A stretch of 64,000 nt of DNA from Thermanaeromonas sp. C210 (GTDB taxonomy: Bacteria; Bacillota; DSM-521; Neomoorellales; Neomoorellaceae). The notes under the pieces are model-generated. The model did not search any database. It was not told where the DNA came from and was given only the letters and a program-made list of their open reading frames with translations. Below are positions 21,174-35,545 of the stretch, piece after piece; the first letter of the stretch is position 1, and every line of letters begins with the position of its first letter. The translations under genes and the position numbers were made by a program. The DNA is taken from assembly GCF_013167955.1 (NCBI RefSeq), contig NZ_BLWF01000001.1:248001-312000 (forward strand), in the 5' to 3' direction.

Positions 21174-23064
21174 ATCGAGTAGGAGGGGGCGGCTAGCCCC
21201 CGTCCTCTCACACCACCGGACATGCGGGTCCGCATCCGGCGGTTCATCAAGCTTGACGAAGACAAGAATAGCGGTCGGTTAAGCTCATGAGGCCCTGGGA
21301 CTGCCAATAGGCATTGCCCAGGGCTCTATTCATTGGCCCATGGGCCATCCGCCATGGCCCTTTGCGAGCATTGGCAAATTGATGTACTACCCACTCTGGT
21401 AGCCCCAGTGCACGCAGTTCGCGGTATCTTGTCCGTACTCGCTTCCACTGCTTCCAGAGACACATGCGTAGCCTCCTCCGCATCCAGCCTTCTATCTCCT
21501 CAAAGACGCTGGGCGTTTCGGCCAGGGCAAAGTATCCTATCCACCCGCCCAAGTAGGCGTTGAGACGCTCTATACGCTCGGCCATACTCACGGGTTTATT
21601 CCGGGCAGTTATCTCCCGAATTTTCCCTTTCACCCGCTCGATGGTCTGAGGCGCCAGGCGGATAAGAATTTCTCCTGTCTTGCGTTTGTGCATGCTGAAC
21701 CCCAGGAATTTCAGTTTCCACGGTCGGTCTACCGCGCTCTTTTGCTCATTAATCTTGAGCTTCAACCGCTCCTGCAGGAAGTTGCGGATACTTGCCATGA
21801 CCCTTTCTCCCGCTCGTTTGCTTTTGACGTAGATGTTGCAGTCGTCGGCGTAACGGACGAATTTGTGGCCCCTCTTTTCCAGTTCTTTGTCCAGGTCGTC
21901 CAGGAGGATGTTGGCCAGTAACGGGCTTAAAGGTCCACCCTGCGGCGTCCCTTCTGCCGTCTCTATGACTATTCCGTTTACCATGACGCCTGCCTGGAGA
22001 TAACGGCGGATAAGGATGAGTACCCTCTTATCCGTTACTTTTCGGGCCACTCGGGCCATGAGTATGTCGTGGTTTACCCGGTCGAAGTATTTCTCGATGT
22101 CCAGGTCCACAGCCCATTCGTATCCTTCTTCTACGTACTGCCGCGCCTTCTTTACCGCGTCGTGGGCTCTCCTTCCGGGTCGAAACCCGAAACTGCCTTC
22201 TGAAAACTGCGGTTCGAAGATGGGCGTCAATACCTGCAGGAGGGCCTGCTGGATCAGGCGGTCCATCACTGTGGGTATCCCCAGCTTCCGTTTGCCTCCC
22301 CCGGGTTTCGGGATTTCGACCCGGCGCACGGGCTTTGGTCTGTAGGTTCCCGCGAGCAGTTCTCCCCGGATGCGCGGCCTTGTCAAACGCGTATTTGGTC
22401 CCGCAACCCTTCGGCCGGGATGCCGTCCACGCCGGGCGCGCCTCCGTTCCGCTCTACCCGCTTTAACGCGGCCAGCATGTTGCTCCTTTCCACCACCTGC
22501 TCCATCAGGCCGCTACCTTGGCCTCCGCGAGGTGACGTTCCGCTTTGTGCCGGAGAAGAACTCGGCCCTCCCGCGGTCCCCCGTGGCTTCACCACTTCCT
22601 CCCGCGGACAGGCCCCTTGCGGGGTTTTCTGCTGTCTTCGTCCTTCTCGCGAACGCATCGGTTTCACCTCTGACTTGATGTTCGGGCCTTCCCCTGGTGT
22701 TCATGACCCCCTGGGTACTATGCCCTCTGCTGACTCCTGCCGGTTCAGCCGTGCCTTCCGACACGGGTTGCCAGCTTTCCCTGGCTTATCCGGCAGGCCT
22801 CCCCGGGTAAGAGCGTTAACCTTCGCCCCGCGCCCGCCCCATCTACTCTACCGCCCCTTGGCAGCCTGGGATTTCGCTGTGTGTTGCCAGCTCATCCGAA
22901 CGGTCTAGCCTCCTATGGGGTTCTTGTTCATCGGGCCGTGGCTTTGCCTCCGGCTTCCTTCGAATCCTACCTCGCGGTAGGCACCCTTGCCTTTGGCTAG
23001 CAGACTGTGCTGCCTCGCCTGCAGCGGACTTTCACCACCAAGTTAACGCCCATGCCGGGCGCAC
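21174..23064 (-). mobile_element. Group II intron (minus strand), class C-like
   Basis: On the minus strand the element opens with GTGCGCCCGGCATGGGCG (a GUGYG 5' end) and ends with a domain V/VI structure: the GAACCGCCGGATGCGG/GGTGGTG hairpin, then GGGGGCTAGCCGCCCCC and CTCCTACTCGAT. Between them lies a reverse-transcriptase/maturase gene without an HNH endonuclease domain. The 5' exon ends 10 bases after a strong GC hairpin, which is the known target preference of bacterial class C introns. The region 22668-23064 is the noncoding ribozyme domain I-IV part. Exact ends are my reading of the conserved termini. Confidence 0.75.
21247..22667 (-). pseudogene. ltrA: Group II intron reverse transcriptase/maturase, frameshifted
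   Basis: The N-terminal part is in one frame (22667-22383: LMEQVVERSNMLAALKRVER, GGAPGVDGIPAEGLRDQIRV). It stops near 22383, and the rest continues in another frame from 22386 (PRIRGELLAGTYRPKPVRRV). RT motifs are intact there: FGFRPGRRAHDAV, VDLDIEKYFDRVNHD, GTPQGGPLSPLLANI and RYADD. The maturase X domain is LNAYLGGWIGYFALAE. There is no endonuclease domain. One base change near 22385 restores a full-length protein of about 470 residues, so this is a recent break, a sequencing error or a recoding site. Splicing could still occur if another maturase acts. Confidence 0.8.
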
Positions 23065-23673: not shown

Positions 23674-26600
23674 CTACCGCCGCCCTCCCCGGGCGCCTTG
23701 CCCCGACCCCGGACCGCAAAAGCCCCGGAAGTCGCATGCCTTGCAACGTACCAGAGCCTCTCCGGCGGGCCCGGCGTTGAACTCCCTCCGTTTGATACGG
23801 CGCGCCGTTTCCACGAGCGTCTGCCGCGCGGCGTCAAGCGCCGCGTCGTCCAGGGCCACCGCCACCTCGCGGCGGGCCGGGTCGACCTCGCCCAGGTACC
23901 TGATCAAACCGCGCTCCGGCTCGTACTGCAACTCCCGCCTGGCGGCAAGCCCGTAGAGGGCAATCTGCAGCCGCATCTCCCCTTCATCCAGGCCGGACGC
24001 GGCCTCCGATTCCGGCCCCTCCCCGGACTTGAAGTCGATGAGCGTTACCCGCGGCGGGTCGTCGAGCCGCACGAGGTCTACCGCCCCGGAAACCAGTACC
24101 TGCTCCTCCTCGATCAGCGTTTCGAACTCACGCTCCGGCTCGTACACCAAGCGCTCCAGCTCGTGCGCATACGTCATAACATAGTCGGACACCACCTCGG
24201 CTCCCTTTCGACGCATGTTCTCGGCCGGCTCGCCGGTCGTGTAGCGGAGGTAAAACAGGCCCCGACGGACGAGCTCTTCCACAGCGGTGAGGACCGCCCC
24301 CGGGTCGGAGGCGAGGCCCGCCCATTTCCTGGGGTTCGCGTGCACCTCGCGCAAGAGGTTGTGGATCCCCCTGCCGTAACCGAAGGCCTGACTGATGCTA
24401 GGTGCAAAGCCTAGGACCTTGCGGAAGTAAAAATCGTGCGGGCAGCGCAGAAAGTAGCAGAGGTCGGTAAAGGAGGTGGCCAGCCGGAACTCGCGGCGCG
24501 CCTCCGACCTCAGGTGGCGGATGCCCTGGGGCACGTCGGTCTGTTCGACGACCCCACCGACCTCGGCGACCAGCCGCGCAATCTCGCGGAAGAAGCGCGA
24601 CCGGCGCTTCCCCGAGCAGGTGACGAAAAGGTAGCGCTCAGCGCGGGTCAGCGCCACGTACATGAGCCTGCGCTCGTCGTCATAGTTTTCGTTGTCCGCG
24701 AGGGCGGCGGGATTTATGCGCTTAAGTATCGGGCCCTCGAAGGGGAGTTCTTTCTCATGTCGCGCTAGCCCGCTGGGGAACCTGTTCGCGCAGACGTCCG
24801 CCAGGAACACCGCGGCGAACTCCAGGCCCTTCACCGCGTGAACGGTGGCGATGGTTACCGCGTCGGGCGGAACCAGAAGGGGCGCCTCCTCCGTGCGGGC
24901 GTTACGCGCGCCCCACTGGCAAAGGCCGATAATTTGGTTCTTGAGATCTCCCGGGGACGTCCAACCCGGCGTCTCGATCCCCTTGATGAGGGTGCTGAAC
25001 TGGCCGAGGTGGAACATGACCTTCCGCCCTCCGGCCGACCCGTCGTCCCATCGGGCCGCCCCGGCCTCCTCAAGCAGGAGGTGGTAGAGTGTCTGCGGGA
25101 AGACGCGGCGGACCGAGCCGTCCTGCGAAAGCCAATCTCTTAGACGGCGGGCCCGCAGCCGGCCCGCCTCCTGCGGCGAGGGAGGGTCGCCAGCCCGGAG
25201 GCCCAGCCTTCTCCCGATCAGGTCGGTCGCCAGAAGCAGGCGCTCCTCCGCGTCCTCATCGAGAGGCAGGCCAGCACGGTGCAGCGCCGCGCAGGCGGCC
25301 CGGAGTACCGCCTCCGGCTCCGGTGGGCACCCCAACACGGCCCGGATCCGCGAGGGAAGGCTCTTCGGGTCGTGCGGAGCCCCCATGAACTCATCCATAC
25401 CCACCGCGCGGGCGAACGCCGCCGTGAACAGGAGTACCTCCGGCCGGGAGAACAGGTCGGGACCGGCACGGAAAACGGCCGGAACCCCCCGTCTCTCCAA
25501 CGCTTCCATATAGGTCCGCGCGTCGGTGGAGGAGCGCACCAGAATCGCCACGTCGGCGTAGCAGATGCCTCGCCCGCCGTCCTCCGCGTCGTGGAACGCC
25601 CCTACGCCCTCCTTCTCCTTAACCAACAGCGCGATCCGATCGGCAATCCACGCCGCCTCCTCCTCCCGGGAGGGAAAGGCCACGACGGCCACGTGCGTCC
25701 GGTCCTCATCGTTTCGGCGTTCGTTCCCCGGCTTCATCGGAGGGTTGCCCAGCCCGCCTACGGCCCCGATCGTGTCGGCCCAGGCGTTCGCAAGGGAGAC
25801 GATTCGGGGCGTCGAGCGGAAATTCTCCTCCAGCTCCACCACCTGGCCGTCGTCCGCCGCCCTAAGCTCCTCGCATAGCCTTGCCATCAACTCCACCCTG
25901 GCCCCCCGCCACGCGTATATAGCCTGCCGGTGGTCGCCGACCGCCATAAGGTGTCCGGCGTCGCCTACGATGAGGCAGACCAGTTGATCTTGCACGGGGT
26001 TGAGGTCCTGCACCTCGTCCACCACCACGTGGGTCAGCCGGGAGCGAAGGGCCGCGAGGGCCTCTCCGTCCCGCCGCAGCAGGCGCAGCAATTCCGACTG
26101 CGACGTGCTGAAGTCCAGGAACCGGCGGCAGCGAAGGTAGGCGTAGTAGCGAGCGGCGGCGTCCGCGAAGGCGCGGGCAAGGGGGCCGGACCCGACGTCG
26201 GTGAGGAGCCGGGCCTGCTTGCACCAAGCCGTCTCGGAGGCCTGGTCGAAAGGCGGAGCCGACGGCAGCGCCACCTCCAGCTCCCCGTACTCGTTAAGCA
26301 GGTCGTAGGCCTCCAGAAACAACTCGACGGTTTGATACTTCGGCTTGCCGGTTCTTTCTTCCAGGGCGTTCAATCCGAGCACGTCGTAGTACCCGCGCTC
26401 CACCAACGCCGGGCGCGCCGCCTCGTCGAGGACGTCGAAGTTGTGGTACTCGGTCGGCCGCAGCTCGCGCAGCACCTTCAGGCAGAACCCGTGTATGGTT
26501 CCGACGTACATGCCTCCGAGCGTGGCGTCCTCTCCCGGAGGGGTGACGCGGCCGATGTGCTGCCGAATCCGGAACTTCATCTCCTCGGCCGCCCGTTCCG

Positions 26601-26790
26601 TAAAGGTGAAGGCGGCGATGGCGCCCTTGGACACGCCCTCGACGGCCGCCCACCAGGCCACGCGCCGCGCCATGACCTCTGTCTTGCCGGATCCCGCCCC
26701 AGCGATTACCAGGAGGCGGCGCTTCACCGACGAAACGGCCTCCTGCTGCCGCGGCTTAAGCCCCTGCAGCAGGATTTCTCGTGGTTGCAT
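23674..26790 (-). CDS. UvrD/AddA-like helicase with C-terminal Fe-S RecB-type nuclease
   Basis: A 1038-residue superfamily 1 helicase-nuclease. IAGAGSGKTEVMARR (residues 29-43) is Walker A, AAFTFTERAAEEMKFRI motif Ia, HVVVDEVQDLNPVQDQL motif II, MAVGDHRQAIYAWRGA motif III, and TVHAVKGLEFAAVFL plus YVALTRAERYLFV the C-terminal motifs. From about 780 a PDDEXK_1 nuclease begins (FLRCPHDFYFRKVLGF). VSGAVDLVRLDD and VTLIDFKSGEG hold the D..DxK residues, and CKACDFRGFC gives the remaining Cys of an AddB-type Fe-S cluster. It should unwind and degrade DNA ends. Its start overlaps the upstream HNH endonuclease gene by 35 bases, so it belongs with that restriction module. Confidence 0.88.
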   Translation of the reverse strand: MQPREILLQGLKPRQQEAVSSVKRRLLVIAGAGSGKTEVMARRVAWWAAVEGVSKGAIAAFTFTERAAEEMKFRIRQHIGRVTPPGEDATLGGMYVGTIHGFCLKVLRELRPTEYHNFDVLDEAARPALVERGYYDVLGLNALEERTGKPKYQTVELFLEAYDLLNEYGELEVALPSAPPFDQASETAWCKQARLLTDVGSGPLARAFADAAARYYAYLRCRRFLDFSTSQSELLRLLRRDGEALAALRSRLTHVVVDEVQDLNPVQDQLVCLIVGDAGHLMAVGDHRQAIYAWRGARVELMARLCEELRAADDGQVVELEENFRSTPRIVSLANAWADTIGAVGGLGNPPMKPGNERRNDEDRTHVAVVAFPSREEEAAWIADRIALLVKEKEGVGAFHDAEDGGRGICYADVAILVRSSTDARTYMEALERRGVPAVFRAGPDLFSRPEVLLFTAAFARAVGMDEFMGAPHDPKSLPSRIRAVLGCPPEPEAVLRAACAALHRAGLPLDEDAEERLLLATDLIGRRLGLRAGDPPSPQEAGRLRARRLRDWLSQDGSVRRVFPQTLYHLLLEEAGAARWDDGSAGGRKVMFHLGQFSTLIKGIETPGWTSPGDLKNQIIGLCQWGARNARTEEAPLLVPPDAVTIATVHAVKGLEFAAVFLADVCANRFPSGLARHEKELPFEGPILKRINPAALADNENYDDERRLMYVALTRAERYLFVTCSGKRRSRFFREIARLVAEVGGVVEQTDVPQGIRHLRSEARREFRLATSFTDLCYFLRCPHDFYFRKVLGFAPSISQAFGYGRGIHNLLREVHANPRKWAGLASDPGAVLTAVEELVRRGLFYLRYTTGEPAENMRRKGAEVVSDYVMTYAHELERLVYEPEREFETLIEEEQVLVSGAVDLVRLDDPPRVTLIDFKSGEGPESEAASGLDEGEMRLQIALYGLAARRELQYEPERGLIRYLGEVDPARREVAVALDDAALDAARQTLVETARRIKRREFNAGPAGEALVRCKACDFRGFCGPGSGQGARGGRR

Positions 26791-27594
26791 CTCCGCCCGT
26801 CTCTCCCTTCCTTTCGGACTTTACCCCGCGTGCGGCCCTCACGATCTCCCTCAACTCTTCGAGCCCCAGTACCCTGTCCCTCCTGCGGTGGACCATACGG
26901 TGGCAGTTCGCGCACAGGACGGTCAGGTCCGCCCGGGGGTCCACGGCGGCAGGCCCCCCGAGGGCGCTCACGGGCTTGAGGTGGTGGACCTCTATGTAGC
27001 CCCGGCCTCTTTCGCCGTACGCCTCCTCGAAGTCGAACCCGCAGGCGAGGCACCTCGTTCCGTGCAGTCTTATCGCCGCGCGCCGTAGCTCAGGGTCCCG
27101 CTCGTACACGTTTACGTATTGCCTTTTAGGGCTGCCTTCGACGTACGTTTCGGCTTCGAGCGCATCGACGTCCTGGACCTGGAGCGATAGGTCGCTTGCG
27201 AAACGGGCCGTGAAGCGGGTCGGCCGGGTTCCCTCATGGGCGACTACTCTACGGGGCCGTAGTAGCGGAAGGCGGCTCCGGCCTCTTTTCCGTACGCATA
27301 CTTCGAGGGCCTGTAGAAGAGGAGCAGCTCGTACCCGGTCGCCCTGCTATCGATGATCAGCCCGTCGGTCTTTCCCGATAGCTGACCGTCGAAGTACACG
27401 TACTCCCCCTCGATGCGGTCTTTGTAGGGCGTCCGATCCGCCTGCTTCTCTCCGGTAAGGAATATCCAGACCGAGTCGTGGCCCGAAGGCTTAAAGATAC
27501 CGTTGTACAGGGCGGCGTCCGTGATGCCGAACATCCTTTTCAACCGTTCCCTGTTGTACAGCCCGCCTATCACCAAGTGCTCCGAGGTTTTCAC
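26756..27594 (-). pseudogene. DUF3427-HNH restriction endonuclease with one frameshift
   Basis: The gene starts at GTG 27594 behind AAAGGAGGG. The first part (SEHLVIGGLYNRERLKRMFG, SGHDSVWIFLTGEKQADRTP, ELLLFYRPSKYAYGKEAGAAFRYYGP) is the DUF3427-type DNA-recognition domain. It ends at a stop at 27244, while the neighbouring frame continues at once as VVAHEGTRPTRFTARF, then KRQYVNVYERDPELRRAAIR and the HNH domain CLACGFDFEE, YIEVHHLKPVSALGG, LTVLCANCHRMVH. All HNH zinc Cys and His residues are present. A single base change near 27250 separates the halves. It is the likely endonuclease partner of the neighbouring methyltransferase. The last 35 bases overlap the helicase gene. Confidence 0.75.
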
Positions 27595-27860
27595 CGTAAC
27601 CCTCCTTTCACGTATCGCCCGCCGACGGCCGGGCAAGCCGTCCCCTTTCGGCAACCCGACCCGGCTGCGTGACCCCCTCGGGCCGCAGCCCACCTCGCTC
27701 CCCGCGGGGCCCACGCAGATCGGGGTTCCGGCTACCACGTGTGGGGCCGCCCGTGCGCCCGGAAAATTACTCTTGAGGGCCCCCGGTTTCTTCGGTAGAA
27801 TAATCGGGAGAGCACGAACGGGGCGGCCCGATTACTTTCTCAAGAAAGGGAGGGCGAATC

Positions 27861-28994
27861 TTGGGTAGAAAGCGCCTGACTGCGGTGGACCTTTTCGCCG
27901 GAGCTGGCGGCGCGGCCCTGGGGCTGAAGGCCGCCGGGTTCGAGATCCTCGCGGCCCTCGAGATAGACCCCGACGCCGCGGCCACCTACGAGAGGAACAT
28001 CGGCGTGACCCCCCTGGTCGCCGACATCCGCCTGGTGGATCCGGATGCCTGGCGGGACCGCCTCGGGCTGGCCCCCGGCGAGCTGGACCTGATGGTCGGC
28101 TGCCCGCCCTGCCAGGGCTTCACCCGCCTCCGGGGACCGAAAGGCGCCTCCGACCCGCGCAACGAGCTGGTCGACGTCTTCGCCCGCTTCGTCCGCTCCT
28201 TCCTGCCGAAGATGGTGGCGTTTGAGAACGTACCGGGCCTCATCAAGAGCACCCACGGCCGCGCCTACTACGAGCGGCTGATCGCCGCCCTCGAGGCCGC
28301 CGGGTACGAGGTGACGGAACGCGTGCTGGACGCGGCGGACTTCGGCACGCCCCAGCACAGGCCGCGCCTGGTGGTGGTGTCCGCGCACGGGCGGAAACCC
28401 CCTCTGCCGGAGCCGACGCACGGCGCTCCCGACGACCCCGAGGTCTTGGCGGGGCGGCGGAAGCCCTGGCGGACCGTAAGGGACGCCATATCGCATTTTC
28501 CGCCCTTGGCGGCGGGCGAGAGCTGCCCCAACGTCCCCAACCACTCCGCGTCGTCGATAGGACCGAGGGTCCTTCGTTTCATAGAGATGGTCCCGCGCAA
28601 CGGCGGCAGCCGCCGCGAGGTGCCGCGGGAGTTCTGGCTACCCTGCCACCTGACGCACGACGGCCATAAGGACGTCTTCGGCCGCCTCGCCTGGGACGAA
28701 CCGTCGTCGGTGGTCGTAACGTCCGGGTGCATCAACCCCTCGAAAGGCCGCTTCGTCCACCCCGAGCAGGACAGGGCGCTCACGCCGCGCGAGGCTGCGG
28801 CGCTGCAGGGCTTTCCGGATCACTTCGCATTTTCCGGCGGCCGCCTTTCGGTAGCCTCGCAGATAGGTAACGCCTTCCCGCCGCCGCTTGCCGAGGCGGT
28901 CTTCCGCGCCGCCGCCGCCTTTCTGCGCCGAGGCGCGCGGGACGATGCGCGGAGCTCAACCCGCCAGCAGGGCGGAGCCGCACAGATCGCCTAG
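27861..28994 (+). CDS. DNA (cytosine-5) methyltransferase
   Basis: A 377-residue C5 methyltransferase. TAVDLFAGAGGAALGLKAAG is motif I (AdoMet), VGCPPCQGFTRL holds the catalytic Cys (motif IV), AFENVPGLI is the ENV motif VI, FGTPQHRPRLVVVS motif VIII, a target-recognition region spans about 240-300, and LTPREAAALQGFPDHF to IGNAFPPPLAEAV are IX and X. It starts at TTG behind GAAAGGGAGGG. It is divergent from the HNH endonuclease and its end overlaps the glycosylase gene by 39 bases tail to tail. The recognition sequence cannot be read from the protein. Confidence 0.92.
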   Translation: MGRKRLTAVDLFAGAGGAALGLKAAGFEILAALEIDPDAAATYERNIGVTPLVADIRLVDPDAWRDRLGLAPGELDLMVGCPPCQGFTRLRGPKGASDPRNELVDVFARFVRSFLPKMVAFENVPGLIKSTHGRAYYERLIAALEAAGYEVTERVLDAADFGTPQHRPRLVVVSAHGRKPPLPEPTHGAPDDPEVLAGRRKPWRTVRDAISHFPPLAAGESCPNVPNHSASSIGPRVLRFIEMVPRNGGSRREVPREFWLPCHLTHDGHKDVFGRLAWDEPSSVVVTSGCINPSKGRFVHPEQDRALTPREAAALQGFPDHFAFSGGRLSVASQIGNAFPPPLAEAVFRAAAAFLRRGARDDARSSTRQQGGAAQIA

Positions 28995-29618
28995 AGGGCA
29001 CTCCCCGCACCGTGGCCTTCTCGGCCGGCAGACGTGCCGCGTGAAGTCGATCAGCCGCCCGGGCTCGGGCCCGCCCTCGGCCGGACCCAACCGGGCCACG
29101 AGGCTCCTCAGAGTCGGGCTTCCCTTTGTGGGATGGCCCGACGGCAGGCCGGTCAGCCTGGAAAGGAACCGGAGCACGTTGACGTCCGCCGGCACGACCG
29201 GGCGGCCGAACGCGAAGGCGGACACCGCGGCCGCCGTATAAGGACCCATCCCCGGAATCTTTTGAAGCTCGCCCGACTCCTCGGGCAGCCTACCTCCGTA
29301 CCGCTCCACCACGTGCGCCGCGGCCCGCTTCAACAGCGGAACCCTCTTCCTCAGCCCCAGCGGCGCCACCAGAGCCGCCAGTTCGCCCTCGTCCGCAGCC
29401 GCCAGCGCCTCGAAAGAGGGGTAGCGGCGCAGCAACTCCTCCCACACCCTTGCGACAACGTCGGCCCGGGTGCGGACCAGCAGGAACTCCGCGACAAACA
29501 CGGCATAGGGGTCGGCCTCCGTCCTCCACGGCGGTGGCTCGCCGAAAGGGCCGGAGGCCGCCAATCTGGCCGCGGCCGCGGATACCAGGGCCGCAAGACG
29601 TTCGGCCTCGCACGTCAT
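28956..29618 (-). CDS. HhH-GPD DNA glycosylase, MIG-like T:G mismatch type
   Basis: A 220-residue endonuclease III-superfamily glycosylase. The helix-hairpin-helix is LQKIPGMGPYTAAAVSAFAFG, the catalytic Asp is in VPADVNVLRFLSRL, and the [4Fe-4S] loop is CRPRRPRCGECPLGDLC. At the position of the EndoIII lysine this protein has Tyr (GPYTA), as in the thermophilic mismatch glycosylase MIG. MIG removes T from T:G pairs that arise when 5-methylcytosine deaminates and is encoded next to a C5 methyltransferase. The same neighbourhood here supports that function. The start overlaps the NurA-like stop by ATGA, so it is co-translated with the HerA/NurA genes. Alternative: a MutY-type adenine glycosylase. 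Confidence 0.85.
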   Translation of the reverse strand: MTCEAERLAALVSAAAARLAASGPFGEPPPWRTEADPYAVFVAEFLLVRTRADVVARVWEELLRRYPSFEALAAADEGELAALVAPLGLRKRVPLLKRAAAHVVERYGGRLPEESGELQKIPGMGPYTAAAVSAFAFGRPVVPADVNVLRFLSRLTGLPSGHPTKGSPTLRSLVARLGPAEGGPEPGRLIDFTRHVCRPRRPRCGECPLGDLCGSALLAG

Positions 29619-31636
29619 TTCCCCGACCCGTACCTCCTCTTTATCTCAGCAACGATCTGGAGAACCTTGGCCTCCACGCTCCTGCCGTACTCGCGCGCCG
29701 TGAACGAGGCGGCCACATGCGCCTCCTTGACAGCCGTCGGGACGATGCGCGGCAGGGCGCTCCAGAGGTCGCCCGTGGCGTCGGTTTCGACCGCGCCCGG
29801 CCGCGCCAGCGCCGCCAGCACCCGGGCCACGAGTTTCCTCTCGCCCGCCTCCCCGGGCCCGCCCAGCGCCTCGAAGTCCACGGCCGGAGGCAGTACCTCG
29901 AGGCGGGGGAGGGAAAAGGGCGCGTCGGGCGGAGCCTGCGCGGGCAGCGCGAAGAACATCAGCACGCCTATCCGCTTGCACAGCTCCTTAAACACCGTGT
30001 ATTGGTCCTGTGTCAACGGCCTGCGGGCGCCCTCGTAGAGGGCGTCCCTGCGACGCCGTGCCTCCCTCTGCACAAACAACACGTCCCAATCCTGCATGCT
30101 CTTGTAGTCGAGCGGGCGCACCCCGCCGTCCTCGGTTTCCAGCAACGGAGGCATGCCCAGGCCCGATATGTCCGCGAAGCGGCGCAGGGCCCGGAAGGTA
30201 ACCGGGACGGCGCCACCAGCTCCGGCCGCCTGCCGCGCCGCGGCGAGCAGTGGCCCCGCAAGCGCGGTGTCGACGCAGCCGAGGCGCAGGACGGCCTCCT
30301 CCTCCACCTCCTCTCTTCCCGCCTTGAAGCGGGCGTACCAGAGCACCAGGGGCGAGAGGTAGGGCAGCTCGGGCGACTTTACGACCCCCGCGTACACCGG
30401 CCTGGCGCCCGTGCCAGCCACCCACAGGAATACCGCGTAGAAGGCCTTCAGGTTCCGCCTGACCATCTCGCCGTAGAAGGTGTCGTCCTCGTAATCGTTT
30501 ATCTTGTGGTCTATGGGGAGGATCCGGCCGTTCCTGAACACGACACCGGGCTCCGGCGGCAGCCCGGTGTCGGGGTGGGCCTGCCACCGCGCCGTGCCCC
30601 GCATAACCCTCTCGTCGTGAAGGTAATGCCGTAGGTCCATCGCCACGGCCCGAGTGTGCCGCCACCTGGACTCCCCGAGCACGGCGGCCCAGCGGGGCGG
30701 TAGGAGCAGGCCCTCGACCGCGGCGGAGTCCTCGTCGTAGGCGAGGAGGCGGTCCGGGTCGACGTCGTAATCGTGGAAAGCCCTCGCGGTGTTGAAGTCC
30801 ACCAGGGCCGCTGCCGTAGCGGTAAGCACCGCCAGGCCGCCGAGGGCAGCGGGGCCGTAGAGGGGCGAGGTGGCGATGTCGAATACGGAGGCGTCCGTCG
30901 CTGCCGTCGCGTCGACATTGCCCTCCGGGGCCATCAGCTCTATCACGGCGTCACCGTAAACCCTCTCGCGAAGGACCGCGTTCAGCGCCGACCGGTCGAG
31001 GCTCACGAACCGATCGTCGGGGGCGGACGGGTCCGCGAAGGCGGGGTCGGAAGGGTCCGTCGCCCTGAAGACCCGGCGATCGACCCCGAAGACCTGCCTG
31101 AAGTACCGCTCGACGAAAGTCCTGAGAAGCTCCCACCGGGCGCGGGCCCTTCTACGGCGCTCCACGCCGTCCGCGCGCAGTAGCTCGCGCCTGCTGCGGC
31201 GCATCTCCTCCGCTGCCCACTCGGCCATCTCCGCCAGCAGGGTCCGCGGGCTTTCCCGGAGCAACCTCGGCGCCACCGCGGCGGCCGCCCGCAAGAGGTC
31301 CGCGTCCCTGGCCGCGTCCCAGGCGACCTGCCCCAGGACGCCGAACTCGCGCTCCACCGCCTCCCTGGGGGTGGGGCGCACGACGTCCCCCCTCTCGGCG
31401 TACTCCGAGGCTACGTACAGGCGCGCCCTCCGCCCTCCGCCTGCCGGCGGAGGGCCCCAGCGGGCCACGACCTCCCCTTCCTCGACCAGGCGCGCCAGTT
31501 GCCTCCTCACGGTTGCCTCCGACGCGCCGGGTCGGGCGCCCTCCTCCACCCTCGCGGCGACCTCGGCGGCGGTAACTCCCTCCCGGCCAGCCGCCCGCAC
31601 GATCTCCGCTATTTGCCCCTTGAGGTCCTCGACCAT
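29615..31636 (-). CDS. NurA-like nuclease with N-terminal winged helix (HerA partner)
   Basis: A 673-residue protein. Residues 1-80 look like a winged helix-turn-helix (AEIVRAAGREGVTAAEVAAR, SEATVRRQLARLVEEGEVVARWG). The central and C-terminal part has NurA-like features: VAMDLRHYLHDERVM, ILPIDHKINDYEDDTFYGEM, VRRNLKAFYAVFLW, then PVYAGVVKSPELPYLSPLVLWYARF and a C-terminal LPRLEVLPPAVDFEAL. NurA is a 5'-3' nuclease that resects DNA ends together with the HerA hexamer. The gene sits between and overlaps HerA (28 bases) and the glycosylase (4 bases). It is much longer than archaeal NurA (about 330-450). The NurA call rests on weak motif similarity plus context. Catalytic residues are not proven. 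Confidence 0.55.
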   Translation of the reverse strand: MVEDLKGQIAEIVRAAGREGVTAAEVAARVEEGARPGASEATVRRQLARLVEEGEVVARWGPPPAGGGRRARLYVASEYAERGDVVRPTPREAVEREFGVLGQVAWDAARDADLLRAAAAVAPRLLRESPRTLLAEMAEWAAEEMRRSRRELLRADGVERRRRARARWELLRTFVERYFRQVFGVDRRVFRATDPSDPAFADPSAPDDRFVSLDRSALNAVLRERVYGDAVIELMAPEGNVDATAATDASVFDIATSPLYGPAALGGLAVLTATAAALVDFNTARAFHDYDVDPDRLLAYDEDSAAVEGLLLPPRWAAVLGESRWRHTRAVAMDLRHYLHDERVMRGTARWQAHPDTGLPPEPGVVFRNGRILPIDHKINDYEDDTFYGEMVRRNLKAFYAVFLWVAGTGARPVYAGVVKSPELPYLSPLVLWYARFKAGREEVEEEAVLRLGCVDTALAGPLLAAARQAAGAGGAVPVTFRALRRFADISGLGMPPLLETEDGGVRPLDYKSMQDWDVLFVQREARRRRDALYEGARRPLTQDQYTVFKELCKRIGVLMFFALPAQAPPDAPFSLPRLEVLPPAVDFEALGGPGEAGERKLVARVLAALARPGAVETDATGDLWSALPRIVPTAVKEAHVAASFTAREYGRSVEAKVLQIVAEIKRRYGSGK

Positions 31637-33117
31637 AGCTCCACCTCTGCCTTCAGGTCGGGCGTCGGCGCCCCGTGCGTCGTGCGCCTCCGCCTGACCT
31701 CCACCATCAGGGTGTGGCGTACCAGCTCAGCCCCGCCGGATAGAACCGCCACGCCCTGCCCGAGCTTGGGTATCCTCTCCCTCATCTGCTCCGGGGCATC
31801 CGCGAGGAAGCCCGACATCGCCCGCAGGTCCTCGCCGTCGAGGGCGAAGATAAGCCTCGTGTTGCAAAGGAGCATTACCTGCCGGTCGATGCCCAGCGGG
31901 CTCTGCGACACGAGGACCACGCCGACCTTCATGTGGCGGCCCATGCGGACGAACTCGCGGATGACCGCCGTGGAGGGCGATTCCCTTCCTCCAGCCGGGA
32001 GGAACAGGTGAGCTTCGTCGAGGCCGAAAACGAAAGGCGGCACTTCTTCCCGCAGCCGCCTTCGCTGGAGCATGCGCGCGGTGGCCGCGACCACGATCTC
32101 GCGCTGGGACCTTTTGAGGCCCCCGAGCAGCACGTTGACGAACCGATAGCGGCGGAGCAGGTCGGACCAGTCGCCCAACTCGCCTATTATGGCGTTTTGG
32201 CGGATGCCGTAGCCCAGCCGGCGTATCGCCCTGTCCACCACGTCGGCGCGCTGGGCGACGGCGGCGCCCACGCGGCGGATCTCGTCGGCCAGCTCTTCCC
32301 AGGTCCACACCTCCCGGCGCTCCGAAAGATCTATATACGCGTCGACGATGAGGTCCTGGTGCGCCTGGGTGAGGTTGGGCTGAAGCGAGAGAAGCTCCGA
32401 CTCACCGAGGGCCCAGAGCGGAACCTTGTAGTCGACGCCCGGGACGAGGTTGACACCTCCCAGCTCGACCGCGGCCTCGGCCATCTCGCCGTTGGCGTCG
32501 AAGTTGACCTGCGGGATCCCGTGCCGCGCGATCTCCTCGGCCAGCACGCCCCGCGCGTAGCTCTTGCCGGTGCCCGGCCGGCCGACGATGAGGATGTGGC
32601 GCGGCAGTGCGGACCGCGGGAGGACCACCGCCGCGTCGGCGCCGAAGGCGCGTCCCAGCTCCAGGCCCTCCCCGGGCGGCGGAAAGCCGAGCAGCGCCTC
32701 GGCGAGGGCCCCGGCCAGGGGGACGACGGGTTTTCCCGTCTGGGGAAGGTTGGCCGGAGGTTCGACCGCCACCGACACCGGGGAGCCCTCGAGAACCGCA
32801 ACCTCGCCCAGCACCTCGAGCTCCGCCACGCGATGCAGGAACAGTGAGTCGTCTCCGCGCCGCATTGGCATGTCAAGGTGCAAGGCCCCGGCCTGCTGTA
32901 GGCGCGAAGGCGCGGCGTCCTCGTTGCTCTCGTAGCCGCTTACGACCCTGCCGTAGTGCGCACGCCTGCCGTCCGGGTCCGGAACGGCGTAGAGCCCGTT
33001 CAGGACGACCTTTTTCCCGGGGCTTATCACGAAGGGTATCGTGTCGAAGGTGGGCCCGGCGCCCGGGCGCGGCGAGGCCGTGTACCCTACCGGCTCGACG
33101 TCGAAGACGCCCTGCAT
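31609..33117 (-). CDS. HerA-type hexameric DNA translocase ATPase
   Basis: A 502-residue HerA/FtsK-superfamily ATPase. Residues 1-150 form a beta-rich HAS-barrel-like region (GYTASPRPGAGPTFDTIPFV). LIVGRPGTGKSYARGVLAEEI is Walker A, VNFDANGEMAEAA the early HerA motif, PPFVFGLDEAHLFLPAGG Walker B, VVLVSQSPLGIDRQVM sensor 1, and NTRLIFALDGEDLRAM the arginine-finger region. HerA pumps double-stranded DNA into the NurA nuclease. It is the first gene of a minus-strand operon with the NurA-like and glycosylase genes. A 17-base palindrome lies just before its start. Confidence 0.85.
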   Translation of the reverse strand: MQGVFDVEPVGYTASPRPGAGPTFDTIPFVISPGKKVVLNGLYAVPDPDGRRAHYGRVVSGYESNEDAAPSRLQQAGALHLDMPMRRGDDSLFLHRVAELEVLGEVAVLEGSPVSVAVEPPANLPQTGKPVVPLAGALAEALLGFPPPGEGLELGRAFGADAAVVLPRSALPRHILIVGRPGTGKSYARGVLAEEIARHGIPQVNFDANGEMAEAAVELGGVNLVPGVDYKVPLWALGESELLSLQPNLTQAHQDLIVDAYIDLSERREVWTWEELADEIRRVGAAVAQRADVVDRAIRRLGYGIRQNAIIGELGDWSDLLRRYRFVNVLLGGLKRSQREIVVAATARMLQRRRLREEVPPFVFGLDEAHLFLPAGGRESPSTAVIREFVRMGRHMKVGVVLVSQSPLGIDRQVMLLCNTRLIFALDGEDLRAMSGFLADAPEQMRERIPKLGQGVAVLSGGAELVRHTLMVEVRRRRTTHGAPTPDLKAEVELWSRTSRGK

Positions 33118-33132
33118 TCAGTTGAACCCCCC

Positions 33133-33149
33133 CGATGAAATTTTCATCG
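33133..33149. promoter_or_regulatory. Operator-like palindrome before herA
   Basis: CGATGAAATTTTCATCG has 8-base arms that are perfectly symmetrical around a central T. It lies 16 bases upstream of the HerA start, beside AT-rich DNA (TATAAAAT on the minus strand) that could be the promoter. The site suits a repressor of the operon. Confidence 0.5.
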
Positions 33150-33535
33150 ATATTTTATACCAAAAATTCAAGGGTGGCAAGCCCGCGCCCGGCGCGTCGT
33201 CGACGCAATCGACCTCTACCGTGGGTGTAGCTATCGGCGGCACAAAAAAAGAGAGACACGCCGCGCTTTCGGCCGGGCCGACGCGGTCTCTCCTCTGGCT
33301 CATCACGAGAGGGCCGGTAGGCCAACCGATAAAGAGGCGGGTCGGCCCGCCGACCGCGCCCGCACGGGGCCACCGTAAAGCGCCGAGAGATTTCGGCTTT
33401 TTGCCCGTCGGGCGAGACCGTACGCGCGGGCGAACCGGCGGTAGGCCGCGTGGCAGCTTCATCGAAGCCCCCGACCTCCTTTTTCTCCCCCCGCCCGGGC
33501 CCTCTGGCCTAATCCCGGCGCGTCGGGGGCCCGGA
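33150..33535. other. Gene-free stretch between GHKL ATPase and HerA genes
   Basis: No gene recognised in about 385 bases. It holds the terminator at 33244-33292 and a further GC hairpin near 33342-33358 (GGTCGGC..GCCGACC). Confidence 0.5.
33244..33292 (-). terminator. Minus-strand terminator after the GHKL ATPase gene
   Basis: On the minus strand GAGAGACCGCG pairs with CGCGGCGTGTCTCTC (one bulge), followed by TTTTTTT. It separates the GHKL gene from the HerA operon. Confidence 0.75.
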
Positions 33536-35545
33536 TCAGCCCGGCGACGCGGCCCCGGCCGCGGCCTCGGAGCAGCCCGGCCGCAGCGCCTGCAGTCGCT
33601 CGTCGTCCGGGGCGCGCAATCTCAAGACCTCCAGAAATTCCTCCCATTGGGCCGCGGCGCGGGCGAGCAGCGTCTCCCATTCCATAGCCCACATTCCGCT
33701 TGACGATAGGTCCTGTAACTTAGATAAGATGTCCGGCTTCTTGCTTAGCCCGTCGGCGATCAGGTAGCCGTTTGCAAACTTGAACGGCCCTCCGGTATCG
33801 GCTGCCAGCTTCGCTCTTACCGCGCGAACGTACCGCTCGAATCGGAAAATATGATCCCAATCCGCGGTCAGGCCAGGGCGCATGAATTCGACGATTGCCA
33901 GTTGGTCGCCGCTGCCCAGCGCCAAGTCTATCCGCCCCTGCCAGTCCTCGTCTGCTTCCATACCCACCTCGGCGGCGACATCCCTGAGAAGCTTCTCTAT
34001 CCGTCTCTCCCGCCTGAAGGTTTGCATCTCCGGGCCGAAAAGCCAGGGGTTGTCGGCAATATAATTTCTTATGTCGGGCTCCTTGTCCCGCCTGGCTATC
34101 CGCTCCTCCAATCCCTTGATGATGAGCAGCTTAGTTTTCACAACCTCCGCCGTATGAAGCGCCGTTAGGACGTTGGCCTCGAGGAGTATTTCCAAAAACC
34201 TCGCCTCGCTCATGTCCGGGCTTTCGGCCAGCTCGCGAATCAGCTCCTTGAGCCTGCCCCCCTCCCAGGCCGTGAGAACGGCCTCGCCGATTTCTTGAAA
34301 CTGCTCGTCGCTTATGGTCGAAATGCGGGCGAGCTTGTTCAGGGCCTGCTTGATAACTTTTTGCTCGCTGCTGGGAAGCCGCGCCAGGCGCCGGGCAAAC
34401 GGCGCCAGCCGTGCCTCTATGGCCTCAAGCCTCTTCTCGGCCCGCCGATCCCTCCAGATCCTTAGGAGGCTCTTGACGCGCTCCCGCCCCCACTCGAGCA
34501 CCAGCTCCGTCTCGGGCAGCTCCCAATTGATCCTCTGCCTCTCGGTTGCGGTCACGTCCGTTGCCAGATCGTCGAGGAAGTCCGCCTCCACCTGGCCGGA
34601 AAGGTATTCCATGCCCTGTTGGCCGCCCAGCCCTCCGACGAGGTTAAAAAAGAAAGGAGTCTGGGCGAGCTTTCCCCGGATGAAGACCGCCACGCCGCGC
34701 AGCTCTTCCTCGTCGATGGGATCTTTGTAGAAGAGAAAGCGCCAGCGGATCTTGCGCTCCCCTAGCGGCTCCTCGCCCCAGCCGGTCTCGGGCTCGATCC
34801 TGATGCCCTCCGGCCTTTGGTCGTCGCGGTAATCCCTCGGAAAGACAAACTCTACCTTCTCCGCGTCCTCGCCTTCCGGAAGCGGCCTGCCGTTGACGAG
34901 CACCTTAAAGTCCGCAACGCGCTGATGAAGGAGGAACCTTCGGGCCATGCTCCTCGCAAACGCGTCGGGGGCGGGTCGCTTTGCCAAGGTCAGGCGCCTC
35001 AGCCTTATGGCCGTCCCGTGTGCCTCCCTTGCGCGGTTTTCGTCCGGCCCCTCGTACTCGATCACCTCTACGTCCGCAGGCGGCGCCACGTAATCGCCGT
35101 CGGACTCCCCGCGCAATTTCGTTATGTCCAGCTCGAAGACCGTTTTTTCGCCGGTTACCTTGCTGACCGTCTCGATGCGGATTACCCCCGCGATTCCGAA
35201 GCCGGCAAACTTGCCTATCCCTTTTCTCCCGAGGAGCGGGCGCTTTTTCTCGAGGGACGTCCCGCCGTCCTTTTGCCTGCGATCGTACCCTACCTTCAGG
35301 TACCTCTCTTGGCAATCCTCGAACGTCATGCCAATGCCGTTATCTCTGATCACGATCTCGGCCTCCGGACCCAGCTCGGCCGGTAGGGCAACCGACACTT
35401 CCTCGGCGTCCGCGTCCCAGGCATTGGCTATCAGCTCGGCGATCGCCGCTACGGGGCTCTGGTACATTTGTATGCCGAGGTGATCGATGATCCGCCCGTG
35501 GAAGCTCAGGCGCAGTCTCTTGGCCTCTTCGCTCACGGAAGTCAC
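33536..35545 (-). CDS. GHKL (Hsp90/MORC-like) ATPase fused to a PD-(D/E)XK-like C-terminal domain
   Basis: A 669-residue protein. Residues 30-120 are a Bergerat-fold ATP site: PVAAIAELIANAWDADA (N box), IVIRDNGIGMTFED (G1) and LGRKGIGKFAGFGIAG (G2). A transducer-like region follows (FFFNLVGGLGGQQGMEYLSG), then a helical linker (about 340-500). About 500-640 resembles the C-terminal nuclease part of Shedu/DUF4263-type proteins: YIADNPWLFGPEMQTFRRER, RIDLALGSGDQLAIVEFMRP. The Asp and Glu of a D..ExK site are present, but the lysine position reads Met-Arg. Family knowledge: MORC/MutL-like ATPases occur in bacterial restriction and conflict systems. Catalysis is uncertain. It has its own terminator and follows a 47-aa ORF. 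Confidence 0.8.
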   Translation of the reverse strand: MTSVSEEAKRLRLSFHGRIIDHLGIQMYQSPVAAIAELIANAWDADAEEVSVALPAELGPEAEIVIRDNGIGMTFEDCQERYLKVGYDRRQKDGGTSLEKKRPLLGRKGIGKFAGFGIAGVIRIETVSKVTGEKTVFELDITKLRGESDGDYVAPPADVEVIEYEGPDENRAREAHGTAIRLRRLTLAKRPAPDAFARSMARRFLLHQRVADFKVLVNGRPLPEGEDAEKVEFVFPRDYRDDQRPEGIRIEPETGWGEEPLGERKIRWRFLFYKDPIDEEELRGVAVFIRGKLAQTPFFFNLVGGLGGQQGMEYLSGQVEADFLDDLATDVTATERQRINWELPETELVLEWGRERVKSLLRIWRDRRAEKRLEAIEARLAPFARRLARLPSSEQKVIKQALNKLARISTISDEQFQEIGEAVLTAWEGGRLKELIRELAESPDMSEARFLEILLEANVLTALHTAEVVKTKLLIIKGLEERIARRDKEPDIRNYIADNPWLFGPEMQTFRRERRIEKLLRDVAAEVGMEADEDWQGRIDLALGSGDQLAIVEFMRPGLTADWDHIFRFERYVRAVRAKLAADTGGPFKFANGYLIADGLSKKPDILSKLQDLSSSGMWAMEWETLLARAAAQWEEFLEVLRLRAPDDERLQALRPGCSEAAAGAASPG

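What the first reader, a model, noticed from the sequence alone, without database searches (positions are those of the whole stretch)
28956..33117. HerA, NurA-like nuclease and T:G glycosylase in one overlapping operon
The three minus-strand genes overlap by 28 bases (HerA to NurA-like) and by ATGA (NurA-like to glycosylase), so they are translated together. HerA-NurA is a DNA-end resection machine of archaea and some bacteria. A MIG-like mismatch glycosylase coupled to it, next to a C5 methyltransferase, is an arrangement I do not know as a described system. One reading is a methylation-linked repair or defence complex for a thermophile: methylate, repair deaminated 5mC, and resect broken or foreign DNA. 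The NurA-like protein is very long (673 aa) and has an N-terminal winged helix, as if it also binds DNA or regulates.
Basis: partly seen in the sequence, partly recalled or inferred. Interest (0 to 1): 0.82.

Follow-up and report, generated by a model that had tools for sequence, protein, structure and literature searches.

The report
Methylation-linked HerA–NurA restriction system
Next to a DNA-marking enzyme sit a DNA-pumping motor, a DNA-shredding nuclease and a repair enzyme, and the same set recurs in distant bacteria and archaea, which points to a little-described kind of restriction–modification defence in which the motor and nuclease would destroy unmarked DNA.

Summary
HerA (31609-33117), a 673-aa NurA-like protein (29615-31636) and a MIG-type glycosylase (28956-29618) overlap as stated, and a C5 methyltransferase (Dcm) converges on them. 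The 673-aa protein is a divergent NurA with a winged-helix head: a relative's model gives Sulfolobus and Deinococcus NurA as the two best PDB hits. The arrangement is not unique. I found 12 more loci with an adjacent HerA–long-NurA pair in Chloroflexota, Cyanobacteriota, Thermoproteota, Thermoplasmatota and on one IMG/VR contig. All 13 carry a DNA-modification gene: Dcm in nine, a DpdA-like transglycosylase plus a DUF6884/DpdC-like protein in four. Of 68 control HerA loci, only 3 have a Dcm. Six of nine Dcm loci also carry a G:T repair enzyme, MIG in three and Vsr in three. The winged helix is present in all nine Dcm loci and absent from the four DpdA loci. Only two of 13 loci carry a recognisable restriction enzyme beside it. 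Best reading: a rare, patchily distributed restriction–modification-type defence in which HerA–NurA is the restricting machine. How it tells modified from unmodified DNA is inferred. The window's copy has N369 where 12 of 13 have a catalytic Asp, so it may be impaired.

The parts
31609..33117 (-). HerA-type DNA translocase, 502 aa; the four residues critical in Sulfolobus HerA (K154, D176, E356, R381) correspond to K185, D207, E368, R394
   Evidence: invariant in 11 aligned family HerAs; critical residues from PMC4351679
29615..31636 (-). Long NurA-like nuclease, 673 aa, with N-terminal winged helix (about residues 1-75). Motif I D248; motif II acids D334/D341; motif III N369 (Asp in the other 12 family members); K420; R578; H640
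   Evidence: AF2 pLDDT 84.6, pTM 0.79; Foldseek rank 1 = D. radiodurans NurA 7f6d_G, prob 0.99; relative L140 model: 2ygk NurA E 1.4e-6; residue table
31609..31636 (-). 28-nt overlap of HerA and NurA-like genes
28956..29618 (-). MIG/V-type T:G mismatch DNA glycosylase, 220 aa, with 4Fe-4S cluster; overlaps the NurA-like gene by ATGA
27861..28994 (+). C5-cytosine DNA methyltransferase (Dcm), 377 aa; PPCQ, ENV and QxRPR motifs intact; convergent with the operon
33133..33149 (.). Perfect 17-nt palindrome CGATGAAATTTTCATCG between a TATAAAAT -10-like box and the HerA start codon; candidate operator (function inferred)
   Evidence: one match in the window; 14 of 100 shuffles gave at least one match with up to 3 mismatches
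33536..35545 (-). BbrUII/HgiDII-like GHKL-ATPase restriction enzyme, 669 aa; upstream neighbour, lower GC, not conserved in the other loci. Probably an added R gene, not a core part
   Evidence: NF050001 293 bits (cut-off 550); GC 61.8% vs 69-71%

Best explanation
This is a modification-linked HerA–NurA defence system, in effect a restriction–modification system whose restricting part is a motor-driven nuclease. Dcm methylates cytosine in a target site on host DNA (inferred from family and intact catalytic motifs). The V-type enzyme, MIG here and Vsr elsewhere, repairs the G:T mismatches left when 5-methylcytosine deaminates, so the marked sites are not eroded (inferred from family and linkage). 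The long NurA docks on the HerA ring; its winged-helix head senses DNA, most likely the unmethylated target site (inferred). HerA then pumps the duplex into NurA, which cuts both strands (inferred from studied HerA–NurA). Shown here: the genes, the NurA fold, the conserved linkage to a DNA-modification gene, MIG/Vsr exchange, and the correlation of the winged helix with Dcm. In cyanobacteria the same pair is linked to DpdA/DpdC-like genes instead.
For: All 13 loci with an adjacent HerA–long-NurA pair carry a modification gene: nine Dcm (window, L050, L051, L052, L141, L149, L150, L151, L159) and four TGT/DpdA-like with DUF6884 (L055, L138, L139, L140). Seven of them were found with a NurA-like profile alone, and L159 with HerA alone. 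Control: 3 of 68 HerA loci without the long NurA have a Dcm within the fetched flanks and none a TGT; naive hypergeometric P 7.6e-12 for the first 12 loci. MIG (window, L051, L150) and Vsr (L050, L052, L151; TIGR00632 103 and 119 bits for two, Pfam Vsr 81 bits for L151) alternate within supported clades. Winged helix: 9/9 Dcm loci, 0/4 DpdA loci. HerA and NurA overlap or lie within about 25 nt in every locus. NurA fold. Patchy distribution: 1/398, 5/292, 1/300, 4/321 and 1/194 genomes; window block 67% GC vs 55%.
Against: No activity, methylation state or phage protection was measured. HerA–NurA as studied acts on DNA ends and has no known site specificity, so the discrimination step has no precedent in this family. 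The window copy has N369 at a position (D133 in Sulfolobus NurA) reported as critical. Two of 13 loci (window, L150) also carry a conventional type II restriction enzyme. Two Dcm loci have no V gene (L141, L159) and one is undetermined (L149). Within the NurA tree the four DpdA loci form one clade, so the winged-helix/modification correlation may reflect one event.
Confidence: 0.68

Rival explanations
1. An ordinary type II R-M system: the BbrUII/HgiDII-like enzyme cuts, Dcm protects, MIG repairs, and HerA–NurA only degrades the cut ends.
For: BbrUII-like gene 419 bp upstream; L150 also has a type II REase and MTase beside the cluster; HerA–NurA needs ends in known cases (PMC12977600).
Against: Eleven of 13 loci show no restriction enzyme next to the set; the BbrUII-like gene differs in GC and is not conserved.
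Confidence: 0.12
2. A repair module: the V enzyme opens G:T mismatches or abasic sites at 5mC and HerA–NurA resects the resulting breaks.
For: V enzymes in six of nine Dcm loci; HerA–NurA has long been assigned to end resection (PMC4351679); NurA and V genes overlap in three loci.
Against: The same pair occurs with DpdA/DpdC-like genes and no V enzyme; two Dcm loci have no V; a repair module would be expected to be less patchy; T. kodakarensis HerA–NurA degrades both strands (PMC12977600).
Confidence: 0.1
3. A trigger-sensing HerA effector of the HerA–DUF4297 or Sir2–HerA kind, activated by phage proteins or ends, that merely shares a defence island with modification genes.
For: HerA pairs with other effectors in known anti-phage systems (PMC11291478; discussion of PMC12977600); PADLOC HerA and mad8 models match.
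Against: A modification gene within one or two genes in 13/13 loci versus 3/68 controls; V enzymes and the winged helix track the 5mC version.
Confidence: 0.1

Closest known systems
Archaeal/bacterial HerA–NurA (Sulfolobus, Thermococcus, Deinococcus; PF09376, PF01935)
   Same: HerA with all critical residues; NurA fold (2ygk, 7f6d); same gene pairing
   Different: NurA about twice as long, winged-helix head, too divergent for Pfam's cut-off, no Mre11/Rad50 linkage seen, always beside a DNA-modification gene
pFV1 MthTI R-M plasmid locus with MIG (V.MthTI)
   Same: C5 methyltransferase with a MIG-type glycosylase (also Thermus L041, Caldicellulosiruptor L042)
   Different: There the restriction enzyme is a classic type II NgoPII-family nuclease, no HerA–NurA
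MORC/paraMORC R-M systems with Dcm and Vsr (PMC2292703)
   Same: Dcm with Vsr and an ATP-driven machine plus a GHKL protein nearby
   Different: No HerA or NurA there; GHKL gene not conserved here
HerA–DUF4297 and Sir2–HerA anti-phage systems
   Same: HerA hexamer driving a partner enzyme
   Different: Partner is a NurA nuclease; linked modification gene
Dpd 7-deazaguanine system and BREX-related capture systems (PMC12839542, PMC11888242)
   Same: The cyanobacterial loci have DpdA-like TGT and DUF6884 (the dpdC domain); BREX-related capture systems join HerA with TGT
   Different: No DpdB, DpdD-K, PglZ or DUF6079 seen in the four-gene cyanobacterial set; a NurA is the nuclease; the window has Dcm instead

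Membership tests
NurA nuclease | NurA (RNase H-like) fold | tested here: met
   window model, 7f6d_G rank 1, prob 0.99, E 8.4e-3; L140 model, 2ygk_A E 1.4e-6, 7f6d_G E 4.8e-4
NurA nuclease | Pfam PF09376 above gathering cut-off | tested here: not met
   No hit for the window protein; best relative L140 19.8 bits vs cut-off 21, E 6.2e-4 over nearly the whole profile
NurA nuclease | Catalytic residues equivalent to D58, E116, D133, K202 | tested here: inconclusive
   Family: Asp 12/12, acid 12/12, Asp 11/12, Lys 12/12, L159 also complete; the window itself has N369 at the third position
HerA translocase | HerA/DUF87 domains with Walker A, Walker B and Arg finger | tested here: met
   K185, D207, E368, R394
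HerA translocase | Hexamer in complex with NurA | not testable with these tools
   Needs purification or cryo-EM
MIG-type T:G glycosylase | HhH-GPD fold, Tyr and Asp of MIG, 4Fe-4S, no MutY GLGYYxR motif, no MutY C-terminal domain | tested here: met
   Alignment and tree
MIG-type T:G glycosylase | Removes T from G:T mismatches | not testable with these tools
   Enzyme assay needed
Type II R-M system | Methyltransferase with a dedicated site-specific restriction endonuclease | tested here: inconclusive
   BbrUII-like gene nearby in the window, 293 bits vs cut-off 550; absent beside 11 of 13 related clusters
HerA–DUF4297 / Sir2–HerA | Partner is DUF4297 or Sir2 | tested here: not met
   No such Pfam, NCBIfam or PADLOC hit in the window NurA-like protein; no PADLOC hit in relatives
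Dpd system | DpdA (TGT) and DpdC | tested here: not met
   None in the window's neighbouring genes; present only in relatives L055, L138, L139, L140
MADS | Full mad1-8 set | tested here: not met
   Only HerA matches mad8 (72 bits); none of the eight neighbouring genes has a comparable mad1-7 hit in the listed families

The most novel reading that the evidence does not exclude
A distinct type of restriction–modification in which the restriction enzyme is a processive HerA–NurA machine with its own winged-helix sensor, able to work with either of two unrelated self-marks: 5-methylcytosine guarded by MIG or Vsr, or a 7-deazaguanine base made by DpdA/DpdC-like enzymes.
Probability: 0.5. Interest if true: 0.88.

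Novelty: new variant of a known kind. Interest (0 to 1): 0.8.

Why it matters
The cellular role of HerA–NurA is disputed: resection factor or antiviral shredder. A version that is always beside a DNA-modification enzyme, with two different kinds of mark, gives a direct genetic test of the antiviral view and would add a motor-driven restriction machine to the R-M repertoire. Exchange of MIG for Vsr beside the same pair also shows that protection from 5mC deamination is repeatedly favoured in these systems. None of the tested NurA-like proteins matches a PADLOC model, so that tool would miss the nuclease.

Tried and rejected
Direct sequence searches with the 673-aa protein in plasmids, phages, viral contigs and genome contigs found nothing; relatives came only through a HerA alignment. 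PF09376 does not ring in the own genome. phmmer against the PDB gave nothing real for the 673-aa protein. GTCGAC (the HgiDII/BbrUII site, my recollection) is found eight times in the window, all at 23881-33204; I considered site avoidance and dropped it, because the block is GC- and CpG-rich and the genome holds 245 sites in 2.68 Mb. G098 HerA (39% identity) proved to be a lone HerA next to pilus-like genes. Profile-profile comparison with haloarchaeal NurA was weak (0.6% probability, E 0.095), though it placed FRDG on the NurA YDG motif. Weak hits in Thermoproteota, Thermoplasmatota, some Chloroflexota and Acidobacteriota were to the winged helix only and were discarded. MutY as identity of the glycosylase was rejected by motif and tree; the row labelled own Nth in that tree was a wrong frame and should be ignored. 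Plasmid searches with L140 and L141 NurA found none.
Full report
OBSERVATION. Dcm (27861-28994, +) converges on them. The block 23.5-33.5 kb has 65-72% GC against 55% in the rest of the window, and only 1 of 398 genomes sampled from the host's phylum has the 673-aa protein, so the set looks acquired. Upstream lies a BbrUII/HgiDII-like GHKL restriction gene (NF050001, 293 bits, below the 550-bit cut-off) with lower GC (61.8%).

IDENTITY OF THE LONG PROTEIN. Alone it gives no family hit beyond a weak helix-turn-helix. With relatives in hand the picture is clear. An AlphaFold2 model from 12 sequences has pLDDT 84.6 and pTM 0.79, and its best PDB match is NurA of the D. radiodurans HerA–NurA complex (prob 0.99, E 8.4e-3); nearly all the next hits are winged-helix proteins. 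A model of the shorter relative L140 (pLDDT 78.9, pTM 0.81) has Sulfolobus NurA 2ygk (E 1.4e-6) and D. radiodurans NurA (E 4.8e-4) as the only PDB hits with E below 0.001. L140 also matches PF09376 over almost the whole profile at E 6.2e-4, just under the cut-off. Residues reported critical in Sulfolobus NurA (D58, E116, D133, K202; PMC4351679) have counterparts in order: D248, D334 or D341, position 369, K420. Across 12 aligned members these are invariant in kind, except that the window has Asn at 369 where the other 11 have Asp; L159, found later, also has Asp. The assignment of residues to motifs is by order and local motif, not by superposition.

THE OTHER GENES. HerA keeps K185, D207, E368 and R394, invariant in 11 aligned family HerAs. 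The glycosylase is of the MIG/V kind: it lacks MutY's GLGYYxR and C-terminal domain, keeps the Tyr and Asp of MIG and the 4Fe-4S cysteines, and groups with L150's enzyme and MIG-like proteins apart from MutY. The Dcm–MIG pairing is known from pFV1 of Methanothermobacter and recurs on Thermus and Caldicellulosiruptor plasmids.

CONSERVATION. A HerA alignment led to genome contigs with the same neighbours, and a NurA-like profile then found more, as did a HerA search of viral contigs. The 13 loci are as follows. Window: HerA–NurA–MIG with convergent Dcm. L050 Thermoflexus: Dcm–Vsr–HerA–NurA. L051 Thermoprotei archaeon: Dcm–HerA–NurA–MIG, with a Cas4-like gene upstream. L052 Thermoplasmata archaeon: Vsr–Dcm–HerA–NurA with housekeeping genes downstream. 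L149 Chloroflexota: divergent Dcm and HerA–NurA. L150 Chloroflexota: HerA–NurA–MIG–Dcm, then a type II REase and MTase. L151 Chloroflexota: Dcm–Vsr–HerA–NurA. L141 cyanobacterium: divergent Dcm and HerA–NurA. L159 IMG/VR contig: HerA–NurA with convergent Dcm. L055, L138, L139, L140 cyanobacteria: DUF6884–HerA–NurA–TGT. Sources. HerA and NurA genes overlap or lie within about 25 nt in every locus.

LINKAGE TO DNA MODIFICATION. Every one of the 13 has a modification gene within one or two genes of the pair. Among 68 other HerA loci from the same scan, three have a Dcm anywhere in the fetched flanks and none a TGT. For the first 12 loci the naive hypergeometric P is 7.6e-12; the loci are not all independent (L055 and L138 are nearly identical), and four of them were found through HerA rather than NurA. 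The G:T repair enzyme is MIG in three Dcm loci and Vsr in three; both kinds occur in the clade that holds the window and L050, and in the sister pair L051/L052, so one has probably replaced the other more than once. The TGT is closest to DpdA (PADLOC 30-39 bits), and DUF6884 is the domain of DpdC according to PMC11888242; both assignments are homology-level only. The winged helix is present in all nine Dcm-linked NurAs and absent in the four DpdA-linked ones.

MECHANISM. Shown: gene identities, fold, linkage, exchange of repair enzymes, correlation of the winged helix with 5mC. Inferred: Dcm marks host sites; MIG or Vsr repairs deaminated marks; the winged helix of NurA reads the target; HerA pumps DNA to NurA, which cuts both strands. 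The last step has a biochemical precedent in T. kodakarensis, where HerA–NurA degrades both strands and the authors doubt a resection role (PMC12977600). Read-out of the mark is not shown. An alternative is that the winged helix binds the palindrome at 33133-33149 and controls the operon.

COMPARISON. It works like a restriction–modification system. It is not a member of Dpd, MADS, HerA–DUF4297 or Sir2–HerA by the tests made. PMC10853773 and PMC12839542 describe other HerA/FtsK capture systems; neither mentions NurA. My literature searches found no description of this set, but the library holds open-licence papers only.

LIMITS. The window copy may be impaired (N369). No wet-lab evidence was found for any member.

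Noticed in passing
window 26756-27590 (-): A YDG/PUA-like half and an HNH half (PADLOC mREase_IV, 29 bits) lie in two different frames: a modification-dependent type IV-like nuclease gene apparently broken by a frameshift, right beside Dcm, with which an intact 5mC-dependent enzyme would be incompatible. The YDG-like reading is by eye.
   Followed up: partly
window 23674-26790 (-): 1038-aa UvrD helicase fused to a PD-(D/E)XK nuclease, in the same high-GC block and overlapping the HNH gene; another likely defence or repair gene.
   Followed up: no
window 33536-35545 (-): BbrUII/HgiDII-like GHKL ATPase restriction enzyme; weak NucS-like match at its C-terminal part (NCBIfam, E 0.0023).
   Followed up: partly
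window 33133-33149: Perfect palindrome CGATGAAATTTTCATCG just upstream of the HerA start, unique in the window; possible operator.
   Followed up: partly
window 21247-22667 (-): Reverse transcriptase/maturase-like gene resembling a group II intron protein (by eye) at the edge of the high-GC block.
   Followed up: no
window 23881-33204: All eight GTCGAC sites of the window lie in the island; the remaining part of the window has none (about 5 expected). Probably compositional.
   Followed up: partly
L058 7709-9354: Acidobacteria contig with DUF6884 followed by HerA, cut by the contig end: probably a further member of the DpdA-type version; NurA not visible.
   Followed up: partly
L159 7006-7668 (-): A 3-methyladenine (AAG/Mpg-type) DNA glycosylase, by eye, lies just upstream of HerA–NurA on this IMG/VR contig, which has no MIG or Vsr.
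   Followed up: no
L141 5115-5762 (-): 215-aa protein of no known family next to Dcm in the cyanobacterial locus that lacks a G:T repair enzyme.
   Followed up: no
L038, L039: Haloarchaeal plasmids carry helicase–metallophosphoesterase–SMC–NurA–small protein–HerA clusters (Mre11/Rad50-like set).
   Followed up: no
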